This document shows positions 1 to 28,692 of a stretch of DNA of 45,958 bases, in pieces. Position 1 is the stretch's first letter. Every line of letters starts with the position of its first letter. The notes under the pieces were generated by a model. The model saw only the letters and a list, made by a program, of their open reading frames with translations. It was not told the DNA's origin and ran no database searches. The stretch covers positions 1 through 45,958 of the IMG/VR virus record IMGVR_UViG_3300045135_002654. The stretch is one strand, 5' to 3'. The position numbers and the translations under genes are program-made. Source of the DNA: a virus.

Positions 1-247
1 CATCTGGTTTAGTTCGTTTAACTTCGTTATAAAGTTCGGTTACTCTCTCCCAATTAAATTTTGGTTCGGTTACAACTTTATATGGTTTAATACCTAAGTT
101 TACCACTTCTTCCAATATACCATCCAATTCATGTTGTCTATAAACAACTACATGAATTTCATCTACGATATCTTCGTAGTGTTTAATCATATGTGGAAGG
201 AGCGTTGTGTTGTGACCAACAACCGTAACCAAGTTTAGTTTTTGCAT
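1..247 (-). CDS. N-terminal part of a putative glycosyltransferase; runs off the window
   Basis: An open frame begins with ATG at 247 and continues without a stop to base 1, so only about 82 residues are visible. The protein starts MQKLNLVTVVGHNTTLLPHM and goes on with a segment like DEIHVVVYRQHE. A first beta strand, then HNTTLLPHMIKHY, then a strand rich in V is the usual start of GT-A-type glycosyltransferases that open with LVTVVGHNxxxLPHMLKHY, so that is my best guess. Its start overlaps the end of the methyltransferase gene (235-1014) by 13 bases, so the two are translationally close and belong to the same set as the GT-B gene upstream. The catalytic region (a DxD motif) would lie outside the window, so the function is only inferred. 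Confidence 0.55.
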   Translation of the reverse strand, partial: MQKLNLVTVVGHNTTLLPHMIKHYEDIVDEIHVVVYRQHELDGILEEVVNLGIKPYKVVTEPKFNWERVTELYNEVKRTKPD

Positions 248-1014
248 CTCTGAAGAATTGTTAGACCTGTTGATGCTGGTTTAGTTTTAAATATACCATT
301 ATTAAAAAAGTTGAAAATTTCCCATTCTTTATTTTCTTTTAACTCGTTTACCAACTTAGAAGGCCCATTTGTAATTTCTTGATGGTCATTTGTTTTAATA
401 TCATCTGTAACAATATATTCTTTTTCAAATGATTCATCTGTATCGTGTATTGAAACGATACCATTTGGTGAAAGTAATTTTGTATATAATTCAAAATCTT
501 TTTTTACATCTTCATACGAATGTCCTGCATCAATATGAAGATAATCAATCTTAATATCTTCTTTTACAAAAAATTTATAGTATGCATTTTCAGTAGTATC
601 TAAAATAACTCGTGGGTGAAAGTTTTCTCTAAGAAAACTTTTTTCATCAACCCAATCAGTATTACCACCTATTCCATTATTAGCATCTACAAGATAAGTA
701 ACACCAATATCTCCCCAATTATAATCTCTATTTCCTTCAAAGATTTCTGAATCGTATAAATCTACTCTTGCTTGTGTCATTATTCTTGGAATAAATCCTC
801 CACCACTTCCTAAACATACACAAGTTTTTGCTCTCATGTAGTTAATAATCGAATAAACTAATAATCCATCTCCAAGAGTTAAATCAGTTGCTCCATGTGT
901 CCATCTATAAGGAACTTTTTTTAATTCTACAAAATCATTACCATTAGAATCTTTTTGGTTTGATTGATTGTGAGTAAAAAAATCTTTAATAAAATCTAAA
1001 TTAAATAATGTCAT
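235..1014 (-). CDS. Class I SAM-dependent methyltransferase (Methyltransf_24-like)
   Basis: The 259-residue protein has a glycine-rich SAM-binding loop, CVCLGSGGGFIPRIM, near residues 66-80. Near residues 155-193 it has the block IDYLHIDAGHSYEDVKKDF followed by LLSPNGIVSIHDTD. That D..H.Y..V..D....LL.P.G....HDT pattern is typical of the Methyltransf_24 group, often found with sugar-modifying genes. It starts with ATG at 1014, in a 4-base ATGA overlap with the stop of the glycosyltransferase gene upstream (1011-2216), so the two are probably co-translated. The likely role is methylation of a sugar or glycan made or carried by neighbouring transferases. A DNA methyltransferase is less likely because no NPPY/DPPY-type motif is visible. 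A phage MetK (end of the window) could supply its SAM. Confidence 0.75.
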   Translation of the reverse strand: MTLFNLDFIKDFFTHNQSNQKDSNGNDFVELKKVPYRWTHGATDLTLGDGLLVYSIINYMRAKTCVCLGSGGGFIPRIMTQARVDLYDSEIFEGNRDYNWGDIGVTYLVDANNGIGGNTDWVDEKSFLRENFHPRVILDTTENAYYKFFVKEDIKIDYLHIDAGHSYEDVKKDFELYTKLLSPNGIVSIHDTDESFEKEYIVTDDIKTNDHQEITNGPSKLVNELKENKEWEIFNFFNNGIFKTKPASTGLTILQRCKN

Positions 1015-2216
1015 TTTGTTCTTTCTAATAAATCTTGAATAATTTTAGACCATTTTTTTTCATAATCATATTTTTTCATGTATGATTTTATTTTATTAAA
1101 TTCTTGTAATCTAACTTCATGAGAATCAAATAAAATTTTCTTAATACATTTATCAAATTCATTTTTTGAACTCGCTCTATATTTGTAATCTAATTCTATT
1201 GCCCAATCTGTGTGTATGATAGGGAGTTTACCATAATCAACGGCTTGAAATATTGAATATCCAAATGGTTCTTTAAAATATGCTCCATGAAAAATACCAA
1301 AATCTTTTATCATAAAAGTATGATGTATCGATGGATTCCATTGAAAGTATTTTACATTTGGAAAAGTATATCCTGTACTTTCTTTTAGATTTACAAAATC
1401 ATATTTACCTGTTAAAATATATCCTTCATATCCATGCATCCAATGAATACATTTTCTTGATTCACATCTTGAAGCAAATCCTAATTTCCCATTATCTATC
1501 AAATCATTTTGTAGTTCAAAATTATGTTTGAATGTATAATAGTTTGGAACTTTATAAGTATAATTTGGAAAATCTTTAATAACATCTGATGTATTGTTTC
1601 CAATCCAAACTCTTTCTTTAAATGTTGCGATATAATCATTACAAAATTCTTCATCAACTAAAGTATTAAATTGTAATCTTTTTAATTCAGGTATTGCATC
1701 TACAACTTGTTTCATTTCTTTTGGATATGCATGAATAAAAATCATTTCAAATTTATCTTCATATTTCCATATATGTTCTCTTTTATAATAATGAGAATGA
1801 AGTGAATAGATACCACTACATTTTTCTAACCATTCTTTTGTTTTATTTGGGTCATCTCCATGAAAATGATAATCCAATCCTTTTGGTAAAGAAGATGGTT
1901 TAAAGTTTGTTGGTCTTTTTGAATCTATTAGTAATTTCCAATTTGTCCTTTTTTCTAAATTAGGCCATACTTCTTTTAAGAAATTATTTACCCATATATC
2001 TGCACCACCTTGTATGGTATTTCCTGCACCAGTACAAATCATAACTTTTGTACTTTGTGGTTTAGCTTGATTGAAATAAGTTAAATGTTTATCTTTTGGT
2101 AATTCTCTATTTACAATAGAAATTATTTCATCTACATCAAAAGTATCTCCCATATCGGTAAGATAAGTAAATAACCTTTTTTTAATATTTTTTGCTGGAA
2201 CTCCTTTTATTATCAT
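1011..2216 (-). CDS. GT-B-fold glycosyltransferase (GT4-like)
   Basis: The 401-residue protein has the layout of a GT-B enzyme. An N-terminal acceptor domain begins near residue 57 with VMICTGAGNTIQGGADIWVN (a glycine-rich loop after a strand). A C-terminal nucleotide-sugar domain carries EPFGYSIFQAVDYGKLPII near residues 316-334, the counterpart of the EPFG..xxEA.A.G.PVI motif of GT4 enzymes; the second Glu is replaced by Gln here. The first 55 residues are an extension with no recognised domain. It follows the 311-aa protein by 5 bases and overlaps the methyltransferase gene by 4 bases. Its position just downstream of the tail-fiber genes suggests glycosylation of a virion protein, or alteration of host surface glycans, but the substrate cannot be read from the sequence. 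Confidence 0.7.
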   Translation of the reverse strand: MIIKGVPAKNIKKRLFTYLTDMGDTFDVDEIISIVNRELPKDKHLTYFNQAKPQSTKVMICTGAGNTIQGGADIWVNNFLKEVWPNLEKRTNWKLLIDSKRPTNFKPSSLPKGLDYHFHGDDPNKTKEWLEKCSGIYSLHSHYYKREHIWKYEDKFEMIFIHAYPKEMKQVVDAIPELKRLQFNTLVDEEFCNDYIATFKERVWIGNNTSDVIKDFPNYTYKVPNYYTFKHNFELQNDLIDNGKLGFASRCESRKCIHWMHGYEGYILTGKYDFVNLKESTGYTFPNVKYFQWNPSIHHTFMIKDFGIFHGAYFKEPFGYSIFQAVDYGKLPIIHTDWAIELDYKYRASSKNEFDKCIKKILFDSHEVRLQEFNKIKSYMKKYDYEKKWSKIIQDLLERTK

Positions 2217-2221
2217 AACAT

Positions 2222-3157
2222 TTAACTAAAATAACTTTCGTTTAATATTTGTACTGAATTATTTGATAATCCATATGTATTTAAAATATAGTTTTTTGTA
2301 AACAAAGATGTATCTCTAAAATACTGATTATCGTTTGTTTTTATTTTTATATAAGATGGAACCCTATCACCTTCTATAAATTGTATTTCTACATAACATT
2401 CACCAATTCCAAGTTCTTTTACTTCATTTATTGCTAACTTTCTTGCTAATTGGTTTCCATAATTTGAAACAAATGTATTTGATGTACCATACACTTGAAC
2501 CCTATCATCAGATAAAGATTTTCCATACATTTTTATATGATGATTAAATTTTGATGAAAAAGTTTTTTTATTGGTAACATCTACATAACCTACCAAACCT
2601 GTATCTAATAATGATTGAGAACAAAAAGATTCCACTAATGTTGTATCGAAACTTGATGAGTTTATATACACATCACAATTTAATTCATTATTATTTATTT
2701 CAACATCTATTTCTTGAATAAAGTTTGTATTCTTTTTTAAATTATTTAACAATGATTTAGAAGTTACTAAATCTTTTGAATTAAATCCATTTAAAGAACC
2801 TGTCGATGCATATCCAATACACTTTGTTGTTTCATCAATTAAATCATTATCTAAATAATATAAACTTTGTGATGAAAAAGATGATGTGGTGAAAGTTAAT
2901 CCATCAGTATCAAAAGAAGAACTATATGTATAACTATTGTGAATAATATTTTTTACTAAACTTTCAACCAATGTATCATTTCGTTGTTCTTCATTTAAAT
3001 TAGTAATCCAATTAATATTAGGTTTGCCATCACTACCACTTATTTCAAATTTATTATACGATGATGAATATCCACTCGAATCCACCCACCATTGAAGTTC
3101 TGAACAAAGTGATAAACTAATAATATCTAAATTTTTCCAATTTTTAACTTTATACAT
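2222..3157 (-). CDS. Unrecognised protein following the Hint-domain tail protein
   Basis: This 311-residue protein is not recognised. It is rich in Ser, Asn, Thr and aromatic residues (for example SSGYSSSYNKFEISGSDG near the start), has no evident signal peptide or membrane segment, and has a mixed alpha/beta look. It begins 2 bases after the stop of the 800-aa BACON/Hint protein and ends 5 bases before the glycosyltransferase gene, so it is co-transcribed with them. Position and composition (polar, Asn/Ser-rich, predicted beta) fit an accessory virion or fiber protein, or a partner of the Hint protein. This is inference from context only. Confidence 0.6.
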   Translation of the reverse strand: MYKVKNWKNLDIISLSLCSELQWWVDSSGYSSSYNKFEISGSDGKPNINWITNLNEEQRNDTLVESLVKNIIHNSYTYSSSFDTDGLTFTTSSFSSQSLYYLDNDLIDETTKCIGYASTGSLNGFNSKDLVTSKSLLNNLKKNTNFIQEIDVEINNNELNCDVYINSSSFDTTLVESFCSQSLLDTGLVGYVDVTNKKTFSSKFNHHIKMYGKSLSDDRVQVYGTSNTFVSNYGNQLARKLAINEVKELGIGECYVEIQFIEGDRVPSYIKIKTNDNQYFRDTSLFTKNYILNTYGLSNNSVQILNESYFS

Positions 3158-3159
3158 AA

Positions 3160-5562
3160 TTAAAATATTTTTTTTGCATAATCACCACTTACTATCCAAT
3201 GTTTTGTTTCATCCGAAGAATAAGTGTTGAACTCACCATTTTCTGTTTCTATATATACCGTATCTACTTCTTCTTTTATATATTTTTTATCTCCAATATA
3301 TTCATCTGCCCTTACCCATTCATTATTTACTTTTATAGGGTGGTCATTTGTAATTTTAAGACCTTCTTCTATTATATAATATCCTTCTCGTTTATGTTCT
3401 GTAATAACTTTTGTAACTTTTGATAATCCTAAATTAGTTTCTAATAAATCTCCAACAATTACATCGTTTACATTAATAAATTTATTATCAGAAGTTAAAA
3501 CTTTCATTTCGTAAAGTAAACATAATATCGCAGGATTATTACCACCACCTCCACCACTACTACCACCCATATATTGATAATAAGTTACAGAATCAGAATT
3601 CATATTATTATAATTTTGACGAACAGTAATTGAAGTATATTGAGTAGATGATGGTGCTGTACCAGGTGCACTAACAGTATTTTTTATTTGAAGTTCTAAT
3701 AAATAATCATAACCACTTGCTGGTTGTCCTAATGTTGTGTTTGTCCAATCACTCGGACTTCCACCAAATACTGTTGTATTATTTCGTAAATCAACATATG
3801 ATGTTGATGATGCAGTTAAAAGTTTTACTTCTGATGTAGCATTTGATAAAGCAGATGCACCACATTTAACACCAACACCATTATCTTTTGCCCAAACTTG
3901 AAGTACTTCATCTTGTCCTGCATTAAGAGCATAGGTTTGAGAAGAAGGATTATTAGTACTTTCCCATTTTATTTGAAAATCTAGCAGTGCCTTTGTTTGT
4001 TTTATTGTTACAGTTTCACTATAATTACTTGGATAGGAACTTGAACGAAATCTGTAATATGGATATACCATATTATATTGATAACTTGACCACGCTCTAC
4101 CATTTAAAGTATCTGAGTTTTGCACTTGTATTGTTGCATTACCTGTACCTGTTAATGCTGTTGTAATAGGACTCCACGAACTATCAGTTGATTTTTTGTG
4201 TTCATATTTTGAAGTATCATAAAATGCAGTAGATGTATATGAATTACTACCAGCAACTGTACCTTGTATTTCCCAATCATCATCAAATCCTGAATTTGCT
4301 GTTACTTGTAGAGTATATGTACCAACTGGAAAACTTTTAGTGGGGAGTGTTAAAATGTGTGGGTCGGTTTCTCCACTATCTATATCAAATGTTGATAATT
4401 CTTGTACGGGTTGACTAATACTAAGAGTTTTTGTAATACCACTTGTTGTATCTTCTAAAACATAACTTGCAGTACGAGTTGCTGATGTATTATTTGTTGT
4501 AAAAGTAAATGTTGTATCATCAATTCCTATATCACTTGCACCTCCTCCTACTTTACTATCTCCACCGGGATGATAATTACCACTACTTGCACTTACACTT
4601 GATATCCAACTATAAGGTCCACCACTTGCCGTAATTGTCCAAGGATGACCACCAGGTGGTGTTTGTGTTGAATTATAAGGAATAGATGTTGCACCACCAA
4701 ATTGAATAGTTTGGGTACCTCCAACAGAATTAAACTCAATACTACTTATTTCAGATAAATTTCCCCATCGTATGGTATCATAAGCTTCTTGTGTAAATAA
4801 TATTGATGTGATTACAGTTTGTCCTTGTGTGAAACTACCTGTTGCTGAAAGGTTAGCACCAGCGGATGAAGTATTATATCTTAAGTTTCTACTTAATCTT
4901 ACTGTATATGTATTTGGGTCCGAACTTGTGTTTGAACTAACCACACTTGGTGTCATTATATTAGTATTGGATGAATTAAATGTCATTGTAAATCCTGGTG
5001 TTGCAGAAAAGGTTACATCCGTATTACCTGCAGCATAATTAGCACTAACACTTGTTACACTAAATTGAAAAGTAATAGGATTACCTGGTTGACTAACTGG
5101 TAGTGTATCAAGAACAGAATTACTACTACCTAATAATTGAATACTGACTGAACTATTATTAGCACTACCTAAGGCCGAGTTATCTGCAGCAGAAATATTT
5201 ACTGTTGCACTTCCATTCCCATATACTTGGTCAACAGATACAAAACTTGGTATGTTTGATAATCTCCACACACCTGATGTACTGATATTAACATTTTGAT
5301 TACCACCTGTATTTGCAAAGGTTACAGAAGATAGATTAAAACTACCAGCAGTTGCAGTAAGGTTAAAATCTTGACCAAGAAATTCACAAGTTGGATTTGA
5401 ATTTCTACCAGATAATATTACTGAATTTCCATCTCCAAGGCCTGATGTTGCACCTACAACTATACCTAAACCAATAAGGTCTGCAGGTTCAAAAATCGGA
5501 GCATTTGTATCCGAAAGAATTTCTCTTATTCCTAACCTACCTTCGGTACTTCTAATTGCCAT
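3160..5562 (-). CDS. Tail-type protein with BACON/Ig-like repeats and a C-terminal Hint domain
   Basis: The 800-residue protein opens with a short virion-type segment (MAIRSTEGRLGIREILSDT) and then has a series of roughly 90-130-residue beta-rich modules. Most close with a strand of the form VSQPGN, FTQEAYD, ISQPVQ, IKQTKA or VRQNYN. These endings, and cores such as WRLSNIPSFVSVDQVYGNGS, are typical of BACON domains, which are common in Bacteroidetes proteins and their phages. A Gly/Ser linker near residues 667-676 (SSGGGGG) leads into a C-terminal Hint-like domain from Cys681. The start at 5562 overlaps the end of the giant fiber gene by 11 bases. The likely role is a tail or fiber-associated adhesin binding cell-surface carbohydrate. 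The gene call is firm; which virion part it forms is unknown. Confidence 0.8.
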   Translation of the reverse strand: MAIRSTEGRLGIREILSDTNAPIFEPADLIGLGIVVGATSGLGDGNSVILSGRNSNPTCEFLGQDFNLTATAGSFNLSSVTFANTGGNQNVNISTSGVWRLSNIPSFVSVDQVYGNGSATVNISAADNSALGSANNSSVSIQLLGSSNSVLDTLPVSQPGNPITFQFSVTSVSANYAAGNTDVTFSATPGFTMTFNSSNTNIMTPSVVSSNTSSDPNTYTVRLSRNLRYNTSSAGANLSATGSFTQGQTVITSILFTQEAYDTIRWGNLSEISSIEFNSVGGTQTIQFGGATSIPYNSTQTPPGGHPWTITASGGPYSWISSVSASSGNYHPGGDSKVGGGASDIGIDDTTFTFTTNNTSATRTASYVLEDTTSGITKTLSISQPVQELSTFDIDSGETDPHILTLPTKSFPVGTYTLQVTANSGFDDDWEIQGTVAGSNSYTSTAFYDTSKYEHKKSTDSSWSPITTALTGTGNATIQVQNSDTLNGRAWSSYQYNMVYPYYRFRSSSYPSNYSETVTIKQTKALLDFQIKWESTNNPSSQTYALNAGQDEVLQVWAKDNGVGVKCGASALSNATSEVKLLTASSTSYVDLRNNTTVFGGSPSDWTNTTLGQPASGYDYLLELQIKNTVSAPGTAPSSTQYTSITVRQNYNNMNSDSVTYYQYMGGSSGGGGGNNPAILCLLYEMKVLTSDNKFINVNDVIVGDLLETNLGLSKVTKVITEHKREGYYIIEEGLKITNDHPIKVNNEWVRADEYIGDKKYIKEEVDTVYIETENGEFNTYSSDETKHWIVSGDYAKKIF
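3163..3522 (-). other. C-terminal Hint (intein-like autoprocessing) domain, residues 681-800
   Basis: Residues 681-800 of the BACON-repeat protein start with Cys681 in CLLYEMKVLTSD, followed by FINVNDVIVGDLLETN. This matches intein/Hint block A (a nucleophilic Cys, then K-V-L, then the ..V..GD. strand). A block-B-like T-x-x-H is present as KITNDHPI (Thr738, His741), followed by NEWVRADEYIGD. The last strand, KHWIVSGDYAKKIF, resembles the final Hint strand but lacks the terminal His-Asn of splicing inteins. That suggests N-terminal thioester cleavage or ligation rather than splicing. The Gly-rich linker just before Cys681 would suit release or transfer of the adhesin part. Confidence 0.75.
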
Positions 5563-8500
5563 CTTCTAACCTTTTGTTTTGTTCTTCTAATCTTTCTACT
5601 TTCTTTGATAATTCTTTTATTGATTCTACTAATAATGGTACTAATTTTTCATACCATATTGTAAGATAGTTGTGATTATCATCATTTTTACCTATTGGTG
5701 ATTTTTTTACAACTTGTGGTAATACTTTTTGAACATCTTGTGCAATTAATCCAATATGTTCTTCATCCATTTTATGAGCAGCTAATTCATTTGCGATTTG
5801 ATTCCAAGTAAACCGTACTCCTTTTAATTCTTTTAATTTATCTAATGGATTTTCTATTAAACCTAATATATTTTTTAATCTTATATCCGATGCATTAGCA
5901 GTAACATTACCAGTTGCCTCGATACTACCACCAACATCTAACATTACAGAGTTTGCCGATAAACCACTGGTGTTCCGTTCCATCTTTACATAGTTATCAG
6001 TAGAACTTACAACTTGTAAACCTCCACCACATATTTCTGTTCTATCCACAGGTGCAGATAAAGTTAATGAAGAGTTTGCGATTCGTGGTGTTTTAAAAGT
6101 TGTAGTAACATCAAGTAAATAAAAATCATGTTCAATTTCTGTTCTGTAATCAAGTAAAGCGGTATGAACATAATAGGTTTGATTATTTGCAGTATTGTTA
6201 AAACTACCTTGTACCGTTGCAGTATAATCATTTAAATCATGGTCATATGGTAAATAAAATGTTTCAGTAGAAGGGTTTAAATCAGTATGTTGTAATAGTT
6301 TTGTTAATTTAAATGGTTGGTTGTTCCAAGAACTTAAAGATGTTGGAGATGCCGCTGATGTTGATAAACACATTCCAAGATAAACTCTTGAATAAAATTC
6401 ATCAGGTTCATCTGCTCCTCCAATATCTGAGTTTTCTATTACTGTTTTTGCAGTTGCATTTGATAATCCACCCGGTACCGTAAATGTACAAGTTACAGTA
6501 AATAAACCTTCACTTAAAGAATTTATAGACATATTTGATGAGGATGGTCCTCTAAGATATGCTTCTGTAAATACCGATGTAATTGTACCAACATTATTTT
6601 GTCCTGCAGAATAATATTTTGTATAACTTGTCATTGATGTAATTGAATTATTTGGACTTGCACTACCAGCATCCAAATTACTTAAAGTTGTTCCTGAGTT
6701 TATTACAACATTTGCTACACCATTTGAGTCATTAATTGAAATATTTGGAGAACTTCCTGCATTAATCTCCATTCGTTTAGCACCACTTGTTGGTGAATAA
6801 AATTGTGATGTTCCCACTTTCCAACCACCAATTTCACCAGAAGTTGCAGTTACTGTACCTGTAATATCTGCATCGGTTGCTGTCATTGCTCCTGTGGAAC
6901 CAACAGTAAATTTTGGAGATGTAGTTGGGACATTTATTTGAGCACCACCTATTGTACCCCCTATTACTGAAGAACCACTTACTGTACCTTGTAGTGTTAA
7001 ACCTGTACTATCTATTTTTAAATTAGGAGTAATTAAATCTCCATTTGATAAATCAAAGAAACTTCCTGCATCTGAAAATATTTCACTTCCATCTGGTCCA
7101 TCATAGTTTGTTGATTTTATTGCATCGGTTGATAATTCACTCGTGGTAATTGTGTTTGCAGCAATATTACCAGCAACGATTGTATTAGCAGCTATGAGTC
7201 CAGATACAATCGCATTTGAACCTATGTATGTTGATGCATTACCAGTGGTTATTTGGTCAATTCCTGCCATATTACCAGCATCACTAATCAAAGATAATGT
7301 TGCGGTATCTAATGTTGCAAAGGCCCCAGCATCACTAAAGTTATCTATACCACTACCACCAGTTATAGTTATATCACCTTTAATTTCTAAACCTGTACCA
7401 GTCCATTTTAGATAACCAGTTGTACCATTTACTAAAGATAATTTTTGTCCATTTGAACCATCATTACCAATGAATATACCATTACTACCATATCCTTGAG
7501 ATGATTGACCTAATGAGAAATATGGATAATCATTTATACCTGTTAAAGTAATGTGTGCATTACCTGTTGTATCAGTACCAATATTTAAAGTATTCTGTAT
7601 ATAAGATTCTTCAAAAATAGAAATTTTAGCAGCAACAAAGAAATCACCTGTTCCTAATTCTTCCCAAAACGAGGTTTGAGTATCAGGTTGTTTGTTTAAG
7701 TTTGTAGTAGAGTTTGTTTTTGTAGCATAATAAACACCATCATATAAGACAGCATCTCTACGAGTTTCAAAATCATCAGTATCGTAATAAGTTGTACTAC
7801 TATTCCAAGGTCCTCTAAATACTACACCAGGACCTGAAGCACCTGGGTCCCCATCACCACCTTGAACGGCAACACCAACACTAAAATCTATTGTTTTACC
7901 AGTAAAGGCAGTTCCTTCAGAATTTGTATAAGAAAAAGTTACAGTACCACTTGTACCAGTTGCACTACTCGGTGTAGTTGGCGTAATAACACCTGTTGAT
8001 GAATTAAAAGTACCACCTGTTACACCCGTTACTCTAAACTTTTCTGTACCTACAGCACCAGATGAATCATATCCATAATTACCAGTTCCTCCCTCATTAA
8101 CAGTAAGTGTAATTGCAGATGGAGCAGTTACAGTTGAAAAATCTGAATTTGAATCTACTGTTTGTACTTGTGGGTCTAAAGCAGCAACTATAACAGGTGC
8201 AGAATTTTTAACTCTTGTTATTGAACAAACTATATCTTGTGTTGCAGTTGTACCTGCAGTATCAGTATAAGTAACTGTTATTGTAACAGTTTCAGTATCA
8301 GAAGTCATATCTGATGCAGTATCTGTAAAAGTAATTGTATTAGTTGATACAGTACCACTTATTCCTCCACTATATGATACAGTCATTGAATCAAAAACAT
8401 CTGTATCACCTTCAAGTGCAGTTACAGTAATAGTTGTTGGAGATTGTGTTCCATTTCCTTGAGAATCTGATGCAAGTGTTTGTGCAATAGGAGTTGCTGC

Positions 8501-11500
8501 TACTGATACAACAGGTGCAGAATCTCGTACTCTTGCAACAGTTGCTTGTAATGATTTTGTTACCGTTGTTCCTTCTGTATTTGTTGTTGATGCAGAAATA
8601 GTAATTGTACCTGTATCCGATGTCATATCTGTTGCATCTGAACCAATAACAATAATACCTGTTGATGCTGTTGATGATGTAATAGTTACTCCACTTGTTG
8701 CTGTTGCTGATAAAGCACTTAAAGTTCTTGATGAACCCCCTTCATTTGCAGTAACAGTTAAATTACCAGGTGTTTGTGAACCACTACCAGCCGCATCTGC
8801 TTGAATAGTTTGTGAAACTGGTGTAACTTGAAATTCTACATTTGGTGCAGAAGCATTAGTTTTGGAAAGAGATATTGTATCTTGTGTTGTTCTTGATTCA
8901 CCCTCACTATCTGTTACAGTTGCCGTTAATCCAACTTGAGTAGAGTTGGTACCATTTGGTAAATTACCAAATGATAAAGTTAAACCACTTCGAGTAACTA
9001 AAGGATTTCCACTTGAATCATTAGAACCAGATGTTATTGATAAAGAAACATTACCTGAACTAAAAGTAGTAACTGAACCTGTATAAAATTCCCTTATAGT
9101 AATTGTTGAATCATCAAAAGAAGTTAACTGTACACCTGTTGATTTCGCATCTACATTTTGAGTTTTGTTTGTTGTATCAAAAGTAAGTGAAGGTGATGCT
9201 ATTCTGTTTTTTGTGTAATTGACCTTTTTCTGAAAAGATTGTGAGGTTGAGTTATCACCTGCTAAATATTTTATGTTAAGAAGTAAAGAACCACTATCTT
9301 GAGACATTGCAGATATACCATATTCATTTGTTAGATAAGATGAATATGCCTCTGTTACATTTGTAGCAGTTGCAGAAATTATATCAAATCTATTTGGGGA
9401 TGATAATCCATTACTATGGGCTATTTCTTTATTTGCTATTCTTACTTCAACTACTCCATCACCCGATGATACATCATCTAAAATTACTCCTTGTCCATTA
9501 GACCTAAAAGAAGTTGATTCGTTTGAAAGTGTAATTGAAACTCCATCAAAGTTAACAACCTTAGATAAAGTAATCTCATCTGATTGATTATTTCCAAATA
9601 CATCTGAACCTGTAAAGGAGTAGGTAACTTCATCAAAAGAGTTATCTGAAAAAGATGATGAGAACTGAGTTGCTGATATTGAATAAGTATCTATTCCTCC
9701 TTCTGTACCCACATATGTAAGTTCTGGTTTATTACTACCACTATTTACCTCAATAGGTGTAACTAAAGATGCTAAATTTTTTCTTTGTGCTCTTACTAAT
9801 ATTGTTTGTCCACTTGGCTTTGGTTCTAATGCAGTTGGTTCATAAGTAAATTGATTTGCGTTTGATGTTACAATCAATTGTGGTGCATTATCACCATCTT
9901 CTAATCTATATACAGTTTCAAATTCTTGTAAATTTTCTAAAGATGCAGTATATACAATCGAACCAACATATGGTGTTTGTAAACCATCTGTTCTTGAACC
10001 TGTAAAATTTGATAAGGTTACCAATCCACCTGCCGTTGTAACATTTGTAAGTTTACCAGGATACTGATTGTAATCACTTGGGTCTAAGTAATTACCATCA
10101 ACATCAAAGGCAGATGATGCATAAGTAACAGAACCCGTAAGGTTATTTCTTGTAAGTGAAAATTTAATTGTTTGGTTATATGGATTCGCAATAGAACCCG
10201 TAGTAAATCTAAAAGCATTTCTATCTGATTCAAATGTTAGTAATTTACCACTTGTTGGGAAATCATTACCACCATCAAATACTCCAACTGCCGTTACAAT
10301 TACTGGTATGAAATTATTATTTATATCATAAAATTCAAAAATAAAATCAAAAGTTTCTGATGCTGTTTTTCGTGGAATATCTTGTATCAATAAAAATTCA
10401 TCAGGTGAAAATGAAGTTTCTTGTGCATTTTTAAGTGATGCATTTGAAATGTACCAATCATCTCCTTTTACTTCAAATACTAACTTAGCATTACCTGTAT
10501 TTTCTGATAATATATTTTTTGATACATTTTGTCTTGTTCTATAAATAGCCGAACCACTAATAGTTAAAAAATTTTGAGTGAAATTAGATGAACTAAAGAA
10601 GGCTCTTATACTTTTACCTGTATCACTTAATGAACCACTTAATATCGTTCTAAAGTTTAAAGTATATTCTACATCTTTTGAAATTGATATTGATTCTGAA
10701 GTTATTAACTGTTGTACACCTCCTGCCGTTGTGTTGTAATCAAATTTTACTGCCTGTGATAATACTGAAGAATCAATTGTTACAGGATGTTGAACCGATG
10801 AAGTTTCCCAATATGTACTTAAATTTGTTTCATCAAATCTACCATATGATAATTCTGTATCTGAAGTAGTTGTAATATCTCTGAGTAATTCTGATGATTC
10901 TAATTTTGATTCTTGTACAAATTGAAAATCACCAACTGCATTTCTTGATTTTCTAAATACCTTTACTCTTGCAACATCACCAACAAATGTTTTAAGTTGT
11001 GTAATATTAATTTTAGCGAATGAACCTGTAAGTGTGGTTTCTCCTATTATTTCGTTTTGAAAATCAGAATAAGTTACTGAGTATGAACCTGATGTAAAGT
11101 TTGATACAAAATTATTTGAAGTATATGGTACATCTATTAATACCTCACTATCATTTAATACCTCTATGATTTTTGCAGTATGAGATGGTGATGATATTGT
11201 GATTGTATTTTCATCAACATCTTTATCCCAACTTCCACTTGTTAGTTGTAATTTATAAAGAGTACCTGCTCTCCAAGTACGAATATCTGTACCATCATTT
11301 GGTACTTCTGATATACCATGAACATATCCTGTTTTAGTTACTGTGGGAACGGTTTTTGAAAATATAGGTTTTACAAGTTCTGTGATTGTAACCTCGGGTC
11401 TTTTATAAAATCTTACAATATCCTCATTACTTAAGTTTTTATTTATATTAAATGTTCTTTCCCACTTTAAATTATATATACCCTTCCACTCATCTGGTAC

Positions 11501-11872
11501 AGGTACGATTGCACCAGTATCATCCACATAATTTTTTAATTCACCAAGTATTGTTATTTTACCAGTTCCAATTGGTGTATCATCGTACACATGAACAGAA
11601 ACTAATTTTGAAATTCCTTCATAATATTCAGGTATACCCTCACCTGGCTCAAAATATACAGGATTACCCTCTACATCAAGAACTTCAATTTTGATTTCAG
11701 TTGATTCTTTTAAAAACTCAGAACCTTCAATAAGAAACCCATTTTTACCACCTGTAAGAGTATCTTTAAATTCTGTTATTTTAAAATACTGTGATGTTCG
11801 TTGGGTATCGTTAAGAAATACTTGAAAACTTGATAAGTTTTGAAAGGGTGAAAATTTTTTAATTATAGCCAT
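5552..11872 (-). CDS. Giant tail fiber/spike protein with Ig-like repeats and C-terminal S74 chaperone
   Basis: This 2106-residue protein is the largest in the window. The N-terminal half is beta-rich with many Thr/Ser-rich modules. Residues of about 1000-1330 hold three tandem Ig/cadherin-like repeats, each introduced by (A/D/N)SAP-V and containing TVTALEG or TVNEGG. A short GDPGASGPG stretch then leads to a small aromatic module (RGPWNSSTTYYDTDDF...VLYDGVYYATK) that resembles chitin-type carbohydrate-binding modules. The C-terminal 115 residues are an S74 intramolecular chaperone: NASDIRLKNI with the Ser-Asp cleavage dyad, EHIGLIAQDVQKVLP, and a closing coiled coil (ELSKKVERLEEQNKRLED). Members of this family trimerise and then cut themselves free. 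The motif TATATTTATA lies about 20 bases before the ATG at 11872. It is probably the main host-recognition fiber. Confidence 0.85.
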   Translation of the reverse strand: MAIIKKFSPFQNLSSFQVFLNDTQRTSQYFKITEFKDTLTGGKNGFLIEGSEFLKESTEIKIEVLDVEGNPVYFEPGEGIPEYYEGISKLVSVHVYDDTPIGTGKITILGELKNYVDDTGAIVPVPDEWKGIYNLKWERTFNINKNLSNEDIVRFYKRPEVTITELVKPIFSKTVPTVTKTGYVHGISEVPNDGTDIRTWRAGTLYKLQLTSGSWDKDVDENTITISSPSHTAKIIEVLNDSEVLIDVPYTSNNFVSNFTSGSYSVTYSDFQNEIIGETTLTGSFAKINITQLKTFVGDVARVKVFRKSRNAVGDFQFVQESKLESSELLRDITTTSDTELSYGRFDETNLSTYWETSSVQHPVTIDSSVLSQAVKFDYNTTAGGVQQLITSESISISKDVEYTLNFRTILSGSLSDTGKSIRAFFSSSNFTQNFLTISGSAIYRTRQNVSKNILSENTGNAKLVFEVKGDDWYISNASLKNAQETSFSPDEFLLIQDIPRKTASETFDFIFEFYDINNNFIPVIVTAVGVFDGGNDFPTSGKLLTFESDRNAFRFTTGSIANPYNQTIKFSLTRNNLTGSVTYASSAFDVDGNYLDPSDYNQYPGKLTNVTTAGGLVTLSNFTGSRTDGLQTPYVGSIVYTASLENLQEFETVYRLEDGDNAPQLIVTSNANQFTYEPTALEPKPSGQTILVRAQRKNLASLVTPIEVNSGSNKPELTYVGTEGGIDTYSISATQFSSSFSDNSFDEVTYSFTGSDVFGNNQSDEITLSKVVNFDGVSITLSNESTSFRSNGQGVILDDVSSGDGVVEVRIANKEIAHSNGLSSPNRFDIISATATNVTEAYSSYLTNEYGISAMSQDSGSLLLNIKYLAGDNSTSQSFQKKVNYTKNRIASPSLTFDTTNKTQNVDAKSTGVQLTSFDDSTITIREFYTGSVTTFSSGNVSLSITSGSNDSSGNPLVTRSGLTLSFGNLPNGTNSTQVGLTATVTDSEGESRTTQDTISLSKTNASAPNVEFQVTPVSQTIQADAAGSGSQTPGNLTVTANEGGSSRTLSALSATATSGVTITSSTASTGIIVIGSDATDMTSDTGTITISASTTNTEGTTVTKSLQATVARVRDSAPVVSVAATPIAQTLASDSQGNGTQSPTTITVTALEGDTDVFDSMTVSYSGGISGTVSTNTITFTDTASDMTSDTETVTITVTYTDTAGTTATQDIVCSITRVKNSAPVIVAALDPQVQTVDSNSDFSTVTAPSAITLTVNEGGTGNYGYDSSGAVGTEKFRVTGVTGGTFNSSTGVITPTTPSSATGTSGTVTFSYTNSEGTAFTGKTIDFSVGVAVQGGDGDPGASGPGVVFRGPWNSSTTYYDTDDFETRRDAVLYDGVYYATKTNSTTNLNKQPDTQTSFWEELGTGDFFVAAKISIFEESYIQNTLNIGTDTTGNAHITLTGINDYPYFSLGQSSQGYGSNGIFIGNDGSNGQKLSLVNGTTGYLKWTGTGLEIKGDITITGGSGIDNFSDAGAFATLDTATLSLISDAGNMAGIDQITTGNASTYIGSNAIVSGLIAANTIVAGNIAANTITTSELSTDAIKSTNYDGPDGSEIFSDAGSFFDLSNGDLITPNLKIDSTGLTLQGTVSGSSVIGGTIGGAQINVPTTSPKFTVGSTGAMTATDADITGTVTATSGEIGGWKVGTSQFYSPTSGAKRMEINAGSSPNISINDSNGVANVVINSGTTLSNLDAGSASPNNSITSMTSYTKYYSAGQNNVGTITSVFTEAYLRGPSSSNMSINSLSEGLFTVTCTFTVPGGLSNATAKTVIENSDIGGADEPDEFYSRVYLGMCLSTSAASPTSLSSWNNQPFKLTKLLQHTDLNPSTETFYLPYDHDLNDYTATVQGSFNNTANNQTYYVHTALLDYRTEIEHDFYLLDVTTTFKTPRIANSSLTLSAPVDRTEICGGGLQVVSSTDNYVKMERNTSGLSANSVMLDVGGSIEATGNVTANASDIRLKNILGLIENPLDKLKELKGVRFTWNQIANELAAHKMDEEHIGLIAQDVQKVLPQVVKKSPIGKNDDNHNYLTIWYEKLVPLLVESIKELSKKVERLEEQNKRLEDGN
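7860..8870 (-). repeat. Three tandem Ig/cadherin-like protein repeats inside the giant fiber
   Basis: Three modules of about 108 residues (about 324 bases apart) begin with ASAPNVEF, DSAPVVSV and NSAPVIVA. Each is preceded by a Gln/Arg-rich strand and contains LTVTANEGG, ITVTALEGD or ITLTVNEGG followed by a Ser/Thr-rich strand. In the DNA, the start of each is seen as the recurring plus-strand word ggtgcagaa near 8205, 8515 and 8845. The repeats are diverged enough not to be a recent DNA duplication. Boundaries are approximate. Confidence 0.7.
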
Positions 11873-26664: not shown

Positions 26665-28692
26665 TTAATACTCATCTGTTAACAATCTTGGGTCTGGTCC
26701 TTGATTTTTACCAGGTAAACCAGGACTTAATGAACCACCACTTGTAGGCCCTACACTTCTTTCTGGTTCAGCATTTAATCCATATGGGTCTTGTCTATCT
26801 TCTGCTTCTGCTATTCTTGAATCCATTGCTGAAGTTCCTCCACCACTTACCACTGCTTGATTTCTTCCTCCTAAAACCTCTTCAGTAGTTCTACCTAATC
26901 CTAATTGTATCATTCGATTACGAGAATCTCTTACAGTTGCATTTCTATCATTATCTGGTGATAATGGTACAACAGGACCAGTTGGTACACATGCCCCAAG
27001 TGGAATAATTTCTAAACCAGATGGGCCCTTAACACTACCAAGTTGTGCACATATAATAATATATGAATTTGGTGTTAGTACATCTGATGTTATTAATTTA
27101 CCTGATACATCTTTATATCTAAATGTTAAATCTTGTCCTTCTGTTATTGTGAATGAAACAGATTCTTCTATATCTTGTACTCCAATATATCTTTCTTTTT
27201 CTATTTGATGGCCATATGATAATCCAAATTCTTCACCTGGTCTTTGATAAGGTCTATCATCAAATCTTACAATAGGTTTACCAGTATGCCTTCTTTTACG
27301 AGATAAGTTAACTACTCTATAACTTCCCATTTTTACTGGCATTACTCTAAGTTTTGGTACTGTTCGTATATCACCCTTAAATACAATTGTATTATTATCA
27401 TCATGTGTTATTTCAAACATATCATATTCAATACCATTTCTCGTATCAACAACACCATTAAGTTCAAATTTTATATCTCCTCTTTCAGACCACACATAAT
27501 ATTTTTGTGTTTTTGTAGCAATACCATATTGACAACTTCCATCATCAATTGTTGCCTTTTCGTTATAGTTTGATGCATTAATATCAGTACATCCTTTGAT
27601 TTCTAATTTTTCATCTTCATAAAAACAACTTCCATCTTCTTCTTGTGCTGCAGGATTAAAGTTTTTAGCATTAGGGTCCATACATCCTCTTACTAATCCA
27701 TCAACCTTATCAGGTATTGTAGAATCATACAAGTTATCTGAAACTGCTGATTTAAGTATTTGTTTAACTTCATCAAAAGTCACTTGTTCTTCTGGTGTTA
27801 ATTCATTATCTTCCTGAATTGTTCTTTTTGGTAAAAGATTATTTAAAATATTTTTTAGAGATGTTTCCATTATCTGATTTATTGTATCAATCGATAATTC
27901 AATTACATCTAAATCATTTTTTGGTTTACCGTAATTTAAACTTAAAATATCCCACTCTCGATTATCAATAAAATAATTTATCGATTCTATAAATTTATCT
28001 CTTACAGTATTAACAAAAATTTCAATACTTTCTATTTTAAATTCTTTTCTAATTAAACCATGATATGTTTCTGTATCTTTTTGTGTTCCCTTTATTGTAG
28101 AAAAAGTATCTAATACTCTTTGAGTTGTTATATTTTGTATGTATTGTTTAGCATAGTATATAGTATCATCTCTAAAATTTTTGTTTTCAGTAAATACTTC
28201 ATACCTTTTATCTAAGTCTGCATTAGGTTGTTTTTCTTTTTTTATTGGTAAGATTCTCATTTCTGTTCTTGATGGTGAAATTTCATGTACCCATAATTTA
28301 TCTATTTCACTATTTTCTGAACCCGCTCTTCTGTTTAATAATGTTACTTGTGTTTTAAAAATACCATTATCATATCCTGCCTCTCTTACCAATCGTTCTA
28401 TATCTACAATAAATTCTGCAGAACCATTAAGTTTTTTTGTAAAGTTATTATTAGATATTAAAAAATAATCTTTTATATTAGTATCATTTAAATGAATATA
28501 TCTAACAAGTTTTCCATCTTCTCCTTGTGGTAATTGATTTTCATTTGAATCAAATAAAATAAATTCAATCATATCCGCATTACCAAGGCCGAAATAGGAC
28601 TTACCAATTTCTCTCTCAAAGATTTTTCTATCTTCAGATTCTACTTTGTATCCTCTTCTATCGACTATATCTTTAAATCCGTCTATTGCCAT
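26665..28692 (-). CDS. Baseplate-operon structural protein with two GCxDP Cys repeats
   Basis: The 675-residue protein opens with a segment of about 150 residues (SYFGLGNADMIEFILFDSNE and so on) of mixed structure, then a helical region (150-320) and two Cys repeats at residues 336-358 and 367-389. A beta-rich C-terminal half ends in a Gly/Pro-rich, probably flexible tail (GPTSGGSLSPGLPGKNQGPD). The ATG at 28692 is 2 bases after the stop of the 405-aa gene. It shares the Cys repeat with the next gene, which suggests the two proteins lie near each other in the particle. It is not a T4 gene I can name; the operon position suggests a baseplate or fiber-attachment component. Confidence 0.65.
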   Translation of the reverse strand: MAIDGFKDIVDRRGYKVESEDRKIFEREIGKSYFGLGNADMIEFILFDSNENQLPQGEDGKLVRYIHLNDTNIKDYFLISNNNFTKKLNGSAEFIVDIERLVREAGYDNGIFKTQVTLLNRRAGSENSEIDKLWVHEISPSRTEMRILPIKKEKQPNADLDKRYEVFTENKNFRDDTIYYAKQYIQNITTQRVLDTFSTIKGTQKDTETYHGLIRKEFKIESIEIFVNTVRDKFIESINYFIDNREWDILSLNYGKPKNDLDVIELSIDTINQIMETSLKNILNNLLPKRTIQEDNELTPEEQVTFDEVKQILKSAVSDNLYDSTIPDKVDGLVRGCMDPNAKNFNPAAQEEDGSCFYEDEKLEIKGCTDINASNYNEKATIDDGSCQYGIATKTQKYYVWSERGDIKFELNGVVDTRNGIEYDMFEITHDDNNTIVFKGDIRTVPKLRVMPVKMGSYRVVNLSRKRRHTGKPIVRFDDRPYQRPGEEFGLSYGHQIEKERYIGVQDIEESVSFTITEGQDLTFRYKDVSGKLITSDVLTPNSYIIICAQLGSVKGPSGLEIIPLGACVPTGPVVPLSPDNDRNATVRDSRNRMIQLGLGRTTEEVLGGRNQAVVSGGGTSAMDSRIAEAEDRQDPYGLNAEPERSVGPTSGGSLSPGLPGKNQGPDPRLLTDEY
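27526..27687 (-). repeat. Pair of GCxDP-type Cys repeats in the 675-aa protein
   Basis: Residues 336-358 (GCMDPNAKNFN..EEDGSCFY) and 367-389 (GCTDINASNYN..IDDGSCQY) are two copies separated by 8 residues. With the copy at 26289-26357 they make three copies in two adjacent genes. The DNA copies are diverged, so this is not a recent duplication. Confidence 0.75.

What the first reader, a model, noticed from the sequence alone, without database searches (positions are those of the whole stretch)
3163..3522. Hint (intein-like) domain at the very end of a BACON-repeat tail protein
Cys681 follows a poly-Gly linker; the block-A-like and TxxH motifs are kept, but the terminal His-Asn needed for splicing is absent. 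This resembles hedgehog or bacterial intein-like domains that cut or transfer the upstream part. On a phage adhesin, a thioester could release the fiber or join it covalently to another virion protein or to the host surface.
Basis: partly seen in the sequence, partly recalled or inferred. Interest (0 to 1): 0.8.

Follow-up and report, generated by a model that had tools for sequence, protein, structure and literature searches.

The report
Self-cutting-type tail on phage adhesin
A T4-like phage carries, at the very end of a probable cell-binding adhesin, a small protein domain of the kind that inteins and Hedgehog proteins use to cut themselves; relatives and unrelated phages repeat the arrangement, so it is probably a tail that snips itself off during adhesin maturation, but no cutting has been shown.

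Summary
ORF 3160-5562(-), 800 aa, ends in a Hint domain (Cys681-Phe800): Pfam Vint at E=2.4e-7, and a predicted fold (moderate confidence) whose 50 listed PDB matches are inteins, BILs, Vint or Hedgehog Hint. Block A, Cys1 and TxxH are kept. Best reading of the end: His788-Trp789 in place of His-Asn, then an 11-aa tail, so splicing and Asn cyclisation are out; only N-terminal thioester chemistry remains possible.

New context: the gene sits in the variable adhesin slot behind the S74-chaperone fibre. Hint-free adhesins of that slot often end in poly-Gly, and the Hint starts just after such an end (GGSSGGGGGNNPAIL|C681). One relative (L127) has its own C-terminal Hint on its adhesin in the same slot; 11 contigs carry intein-like Hints inside the fibre, with a Hint-free relative of that site; isolates (NCTB; Erwinia/Dickeya/Yersinia jumbo phages) carry C-terminal Hints on virion or tail proteins.

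Most likely: a B-type-BIL-like domain releasing the adhesin at Leu680/Cys681 (p~0.5). Rivals: decayed or merely structural relic (0.3), covalent transfer (0.1). "BACON repeats" is only partly supported. New variant of a known kind.

The parts
3160..5562 (-). Adhesin gene (800 aa), directly downstream of the long fibre, C-terminal Hint
   Evidence: ORF; residues 52-163 homologous to slot adhesin L121, E=1.4e-8; same slot in relatives
3523..3567 (-). Poly-Gly linker GGSSGGGGGNNPAIL (residues 666-680), resembles natural adhesin C-termini of relatives
   Evidence: L091 ends SGGGGVILGPIN, L117 SSGGGGDGPDPGDQI, L177 SGGGGGI; NCTB has YSGGGGGG just before its Hint
3163..3522 (-). Hint domain, residues 681-800
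   Evidence: Pfam Vint E=2.4e-7; HMM and fold matches
3520..3522 (-). Cys681, position 1 of the Hint (N-S acyl shift nucleophile)
   Evidence: Aligned with Cys1/Ser1 of all other phage Hints
3340..3351 (-). Block B T738-N-D-H741 (TxxH)
   Evidence: Invariant His in alignments
3241..3267 (-). Block F-like VDTVYIETE (766-774), usual Asp F:4 replaced by Tyr
   Evidence: HMM of C-terminal Hints; the Asp-to-Tyr assignment is my reading of the alignment
3196..3201 (-). His788-Trp789, likeliest counterpart of the terminal His-Asn
   Evidence: Pairwise alignment with Yen9-02 Hint; alternative alignments put the last residues of the ORF there; not certain
3163..3195 (-). 11-residue tail IVSGDYAKKIF, comparable to 6-17 aa tails after other C-terminal Hints
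   Evidence: Tails IREEKI, APVDQKH, VDLVSKAEKN, TDIVAKAEKT
5552..11872 (-). Long tail fibre (2106 aa) ending in Peptidase_S74 chaperone; Hint-free here, Hint-bearing in L003/L008/L009/L010 etc.
   Evidence: Pfam PF13884; relatives
2222..3157 (-). Gene of the same cassette (311 aa), a separate gene in L123 too
   Evidence: phmmer E=2.8e-6 to L123 1281-2234

Best explanation
A C-terminal Hint domain that works like a B-type bacterial intein-like (BIL) domain on a phage receptor-binding protein. After folding, Cys681 attacks the Leu680-Cys681 bond (helped by T738/H741) and forms a thioester; hydrolysis or a small thiol then releases the adhesin (1-680, ending ...GGGGGNNPAIL) from the 14-kDa Hint. 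With Asn lost there is no Asn cyclisation, hence no C-terminal cut and no splicing. Shown: domain identity, fold class, position in a variable adhesin slot, kept N-side motifs, recurrence of the architecture. Inferred: that the protein is the tip adhesin, that the Hint is active, that the product is hydrolysed, and that the removed part is a maturation or folding tail.
For: Hint by sequence and fold. Cys1 and TxxH kept, His741 invariant among phage Hints. Slot adhesins without Hint often end in poly-Gly, so cutting at 680/681 restores a normal-looking end. Same-slot adhesin L127 has its own C-terminal Hint with a 6-aa tail. Unrelated isolates repeat it: NCTB (poly-Gly linker then Hint), Erwinia/Dickeya/Yersinia jumbo virion structural proteins. 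With only 6-17 aa behind the Hint, splicing would gain little; N-cleavage is the activity that makes sense. B-type BILs have the intein motifs except the C-terminal one and cleave N-terminally (PMC7765530, PMC4031507).
Against: No cleavage data. Only one sequence of this Hint is known, so constraint on C681/H741 cannot be tested. It is the longest branch of the tree (2.69), F:4 Asp and terminal Asn seem lost, and block A has M and N where relatives have T and G: all fit decay too. The last 23 residues are not confidently modelled.
Confidence: 0.5

Rival explanations
1. Inactive relic or purely structural cap: a former intein/BIL-type Hint that lost its chemistry and stays as a C-terminal domain of the adhesin.
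For: Asn and likely F:4 Asp lost; longest branch in the Hint tree; only adhesin Hint seen without His-Asn.
Against: Cys1, TxxH and VGD kept; no frameshift or stop inside; block A/B still score as Hint.
Confidence: 0.3
2. Covalent transfer: the adhesin thioester is taken by an amine or other nucleophile (another virion protein, host surface, or small molecule), as cholesterol takes the Hedgehog thioester.
For: Chemistry available if the N-S shift works and C-terminal steps are lost; Hedgehog autoprocessing is the precedent.
Against: No SRR-like or partner domain follows the Hint (11 aa only); no candidate nucleophile identified; Hint-free adhesins do without it.
Confidence: 0.1
3. Part of a longer protein: -1 frameshifting at the A AAA AAA heptamer (3168-3175) or trans-splicing with a C-half encoded elsewhere gives the Hint a C-extein (e.g. 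the 311-aa ORF).
For: The -1 frame runs into the 311-aa ORF and would read ...GDYAKKN-ILIMYK; the Hint's best blastp match is a split-intein N-half; the record is a fragment.
Against: 20 such heptamers among 14,337 window codons; no downstream RNA structure (z +0.66); the L123 homologue of the 311-aa protein is a separate gene after a Hint-free adhesin; the domain already has a block F.
Confidence: 0.04

Closest known systems
B-type bacterial intein-like (BIL) domains
   Same: Intein motifs A, B, F without the C-terminal motif; in variable surface-type proteins; expected N-terminal cleavage
   Different: Phage adhesin instead of bacterial secreted protein; at the very C-terminus; activity untested; no BIL-B profile was available to compare with
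Vint domain (PF14623)
   Same: Best Pfam match; solved Vint 8r2c among top fold matches
   Different: No VWA or Vwaint domain; only the first half of the model matches
C-terminal Hints on jumbo-phage virion proteins (NCTB 'large intein domain protein'; 480-aa virion structural protein of Alexandravirus-type phages and Yersinia phage fHe-Yen9-02)
   Same: Hint at the end of a virion/tail protein, short tail; NCTB also has a poly-Gly linker
   Different: They keep His-Asn; only 26-30% local identity to the window Hint; different phage lineages
Intein-like Hints in fibres of close relatives (L003, L008-L010, L101-L111)
   Same: Same genome neighbourhood, receptor-binding protein
   Different: Internal, with His-Asn (+1 M, V, T, I or P) and a 180-280 aa C-extein; separate branch in the tree (88/89)
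Hedgehog Hog domain
   Same: C-terminal Hint with Cys1 and TxxH, no terminal splicing motif
   Different: No sterol-recognition region; weak fold score (1at0, E=0.06)

Membership tests
Hint superfamily | Hint fold | tested here: met
   All 50 listed PDB matches are inteins, BIL, Vint or Hedgehog; moderate model confidence
Hint superfamily | Cys/Ser1 and block B TxxH | tested here: met
   C681, T738-H741
Intein | C-terminal His-Asn and +1 Cys/Ser/Thr | tested here: not met
   H788-W789-I790 at best; no TIGR01443 match
Intein | Inserted in frame inside a host protein with a C-extein | tested here: not met
   ORF ends 11 residues after H788-W789
A-type BIL | C-terminal His-Asn without +1 nucleophile | tested here: not met
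   Asn missing here; met by L127, NCTB and most fibre Hints
B-type BIL | Intein motifs A, B, F but no C-terminal motif | tested here: inconclusive
   Pattern fits, but not compared with a BIL-B profile; block F weak
B-type BIL | N-terminal self-cleavage | not testable with these tools
   Needs expression and mass spectrometry
Vint proteins | VWA-Vwaint-Vint architecture | tested here: not met
   No VWA; only Vint positions 2-90/166 match; definition in PMC2362128
Hedgehog/Hog | Sterol-recognition region after Hint | tested here: not met
   Only 11 residues follow
BACON-repeat adhesin | BACON (PF13004) domains | tested here: inconclusive
   Sub-threshold here (11.4 bits); slot counterparts L091 (above cut-off) and L117 (21.9 bits, below cut-off) match

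The most novel reading that the evidence does not exclude
The Hint creates an activated thioester at the end of a phage adhesin that is passed to a nucleophile on the virion or the host surface, i.e. a phage that bonds covalently through intein chemistry.
Probability: 0.08. Interest if true: 0.9.

Novelty: new variant of a known kind. Interest (0 to 1): 0.55.

Why it matters
Inteins in phages are usually discussed in replication and packaging enzymes. Here Hint domains recur on receptor-binding and other virion proteins, inside fibres or as C-terminal tails, in several unrelated phage groups. If they cut, they are a maturation step for adhesins that can be tested in available isolates; the window is the case with the splicing terminus lost, the cleanest test of N-cleavage only.

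Tried and rejected
Close relatives of the Hint or of the whole adhesin: none in IMG/VR by peptide patterns, in GTDB genomes or in phage records, apart from an RNR intein. Family and protein searches of 40 related records with the genome search: empty, even in records with known Hints, so uninformative. Second AF2 run with more rows was worse (pLDDT 48). hhalign of the single Hint against four fibre Hints was weak (reported probability 0.8, E=0.069). Assembly frameshift or programmed -1 frameshift: considered, little support. Split-intein C-half in the window: not found by HMM. Composition: Hint DNA about 27% G+C against 32-37% upstream, but the following genes are equally low, so no argument. 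Literature: no paper found on C-terminal Hints of phage virion proteins among those held.

Full report
What is there. The window is a linear 45,958-base virus record from IMG/VR. Genes run mostly on the minus strand and resemble T4-like phages: baseplate wedge, tail lysozyme, DNA polymerase, SbcCD, DnaG-like primase, fibre. Its wedge relatives include Microcystis phage Mel-JY01 and Flavobacterium phages immuto (39-44% identity). The flagged domain is residues 681-800 of an 800-aa ORF at 3160-5562.

Is it a Hint domain? Yes. Pfam Vint matches at E=2.4e-7 (31.2 bits, cut-off 27) when the domain is scanned alone, though over the first half of the model only. The nearest sequences are intein N-halves (35% over 80 aa with a split RecA/UvsX-type intein; an RNR intein). 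The AF2 model is moderate (pLDDT 63, pTM 0.57, last 23 residues unmodelled), made with 10 rows, but every PDB match listed is an intein, BIL, Vint or Hedgehog Hint, with 8r2c (Vint) at TMq 0.56/3.0 A and 2lwy (BIL) at TMq 0.60/3.3 A. The rows of the alignment are Hints themselves, so the model is not independent of that assignment; the Pfam match is.

Catalytic anatomy. Cys681 is position 1; V-G-D, T738-N-D-H741 and a block-F stretch VDTVYIETE (766-774) are present. The C-terminal end is ambiguous. Aligned with the fibre Hints the ORF stops about where His-Asn would stand, with other residues there. Aligned with the C-terminal Hint of phage fHe-Yen9-02 the last 40 residues run with small gaps and put His788-Trp789 on His-Asn, followed by an 11-aa tail of the same size as tails in that class. 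I prefer the second, since HMMs of C-terminal Hints place block F at 766-774, but it is an inference, and pairwise alignments to the other C-terminal Hints did not reproduce it. Either way Asn is missing. The other two frames bring no His-Asn at that place.

Where it sits. Behind the fibre and before a glycosyltransferase-like gene and a methyltransferase there is a variable slot. In many relatives with an S74-ended fibre the slot holds a large non-conserved ORF with Ig/BACON-like repeats: L091 (BACON, E=6.7e-8), L117 (BACON 21.9 bits), L121, L122, L124. The window protein is homologous to L121 over residues 52-163 (32%, E=1.4e-8) and weakly to L091 in the BACON region. By position it corresponds to the tip adhesin (gp38-like) of T-even fibres; that function is inferred. 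Several of these ORFs end in poly-Gly: SGGGGVILGPIN, SSGGGGDGPDPGDQI, SGGGGGI. The window Hint starts right after GGSSGGGGGNNPAIL, as if appended to such an end.

Recurrence. (a) L127, a relative with 66% identical methyltransferase, has in the same slot a 567-aa adhesin that ends in a Hint with Cys1, TYEH, His-Asn and a six-residue tail. (b) L061 has a C-terminal Hint, His-Asn and 17-aa tail on another structural gene, the positional counterpart of window 26665-28692 near the baseplate wedge. (c) Eleven IMG/VR contigs carry a complete Hint inside the fibre near its C-end, Cys1 or Ser1, His-Asn, +1 = M, V, T, I or P; those with +1 Thr could splice, the others look A-type BIL-like. A Hint-free fibre (L114) aligns through the junction with the joined flanks of L109, so the fibre Hint is an optional insert. 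(d) Among phage isolates, the L127 and NCTB Hints find C-terminal Hints on a 480-aa virion structural protein of Erwinia jumbo phages (with matches in Dickeya phage AD1) and Yersinia fHe-Yen9-02, on a tail protein of Alcaligenes phage Afa-NA1, and on a 1304-aa protein in the tail-fibre region of NCTB where the Hint follows YSGGGGGG and is followed by APVDQKH. In a small tree the C-terminal Hints and the fibre Hints fall on different sides of a branch with 88/89 support; the window Hint has the longest branch (2.69) and no secure place.

How it most likely works. Reviews state that A-type BILs keep His-Asn and B-type BILs keep the intein motifs except the C-terminal one and cleave without splicing (PMC4031507, PMC7765530). 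The window Hint has that pattern. If active, the only open route is N-S acyl shift at Cys681 and loss of the N-part by hydrolysis or a nucleophile. Cutting there gives an adhesin with the same kind of end as its Hint-free relatives. I give 0.5 to this, 0.3 to an inactive or structural remnant (long branch, lost Asn and F:4 Asp, changed residues in block A), 0.1 to covalent transfer, the rest to fusion or trans schemes. The shown steps are the domain, motifs, position and recurrence; activity, timing and biological purpose are inferred.

Novelty. Hints in phages, and annotated 'intein' proteins in tail regions, are known to databases; the papers I could search describe phage inteins in enzymes and terminases and none treats C-terminal Hints on virion adhesins, but the library lacks most subscription journals. 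The finding is a new variant of a known kind rather than a new kind.

Noticed in passing
L003 10001-17206, L008, L009, L010, L101-L111: Intein-like Hints inside the C-end of long tail fibres in 11 contigs; +1 residue varies (M, V, T, I, P); L008/L111 start with Ser1.
   Followed up: yes
L114 1-2148: Hint-free fibre whose sequence runs through the Hint insertion site of L109/L110 (empty site, C-extein highly similar).
   Followed up: partly
L127 1539-3242: Adhesin in the same slot with its own C-terminal Hint, His-Asn, six-residue tail IREEKI.
   Followed up: yes
L061 4228-6207: Structural gene near the baseplate wedge with C-terminal Hint; also scores to Pfam AXH (E=5.2e-16).
   Followed up: partly
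L192 569-4483; L189 2517-3959; L190 2514-3956: C-terminal Hints on virion or tail proteins of isolated jumbo phages, annotated as virion structural or large intein domain protein.
   Followed up: partly
window 3168-3175: Run of eight A forming an in-frame A AAA AAA heptamer near the adhesin stop; the -1 frame continues into the 311-aa ORF.
   Followed up: yes
L100 1724-3205 and 4098-5676: Two genes with split-intein-like halves (DNA polymerase and RecA/UvsX-like) in one small contig.
   Followed up: no
L099 7764-11924: Portal-like protein of uncultured phage LR756508 with three Hint/intein regions.
   Followed up: no
window 235-2216: Glycosyltransferase-like and methyltransferase genes directly behind the adhesin slot, conserved across relatives; possible surface or adhesin modification.
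   Followed up: no
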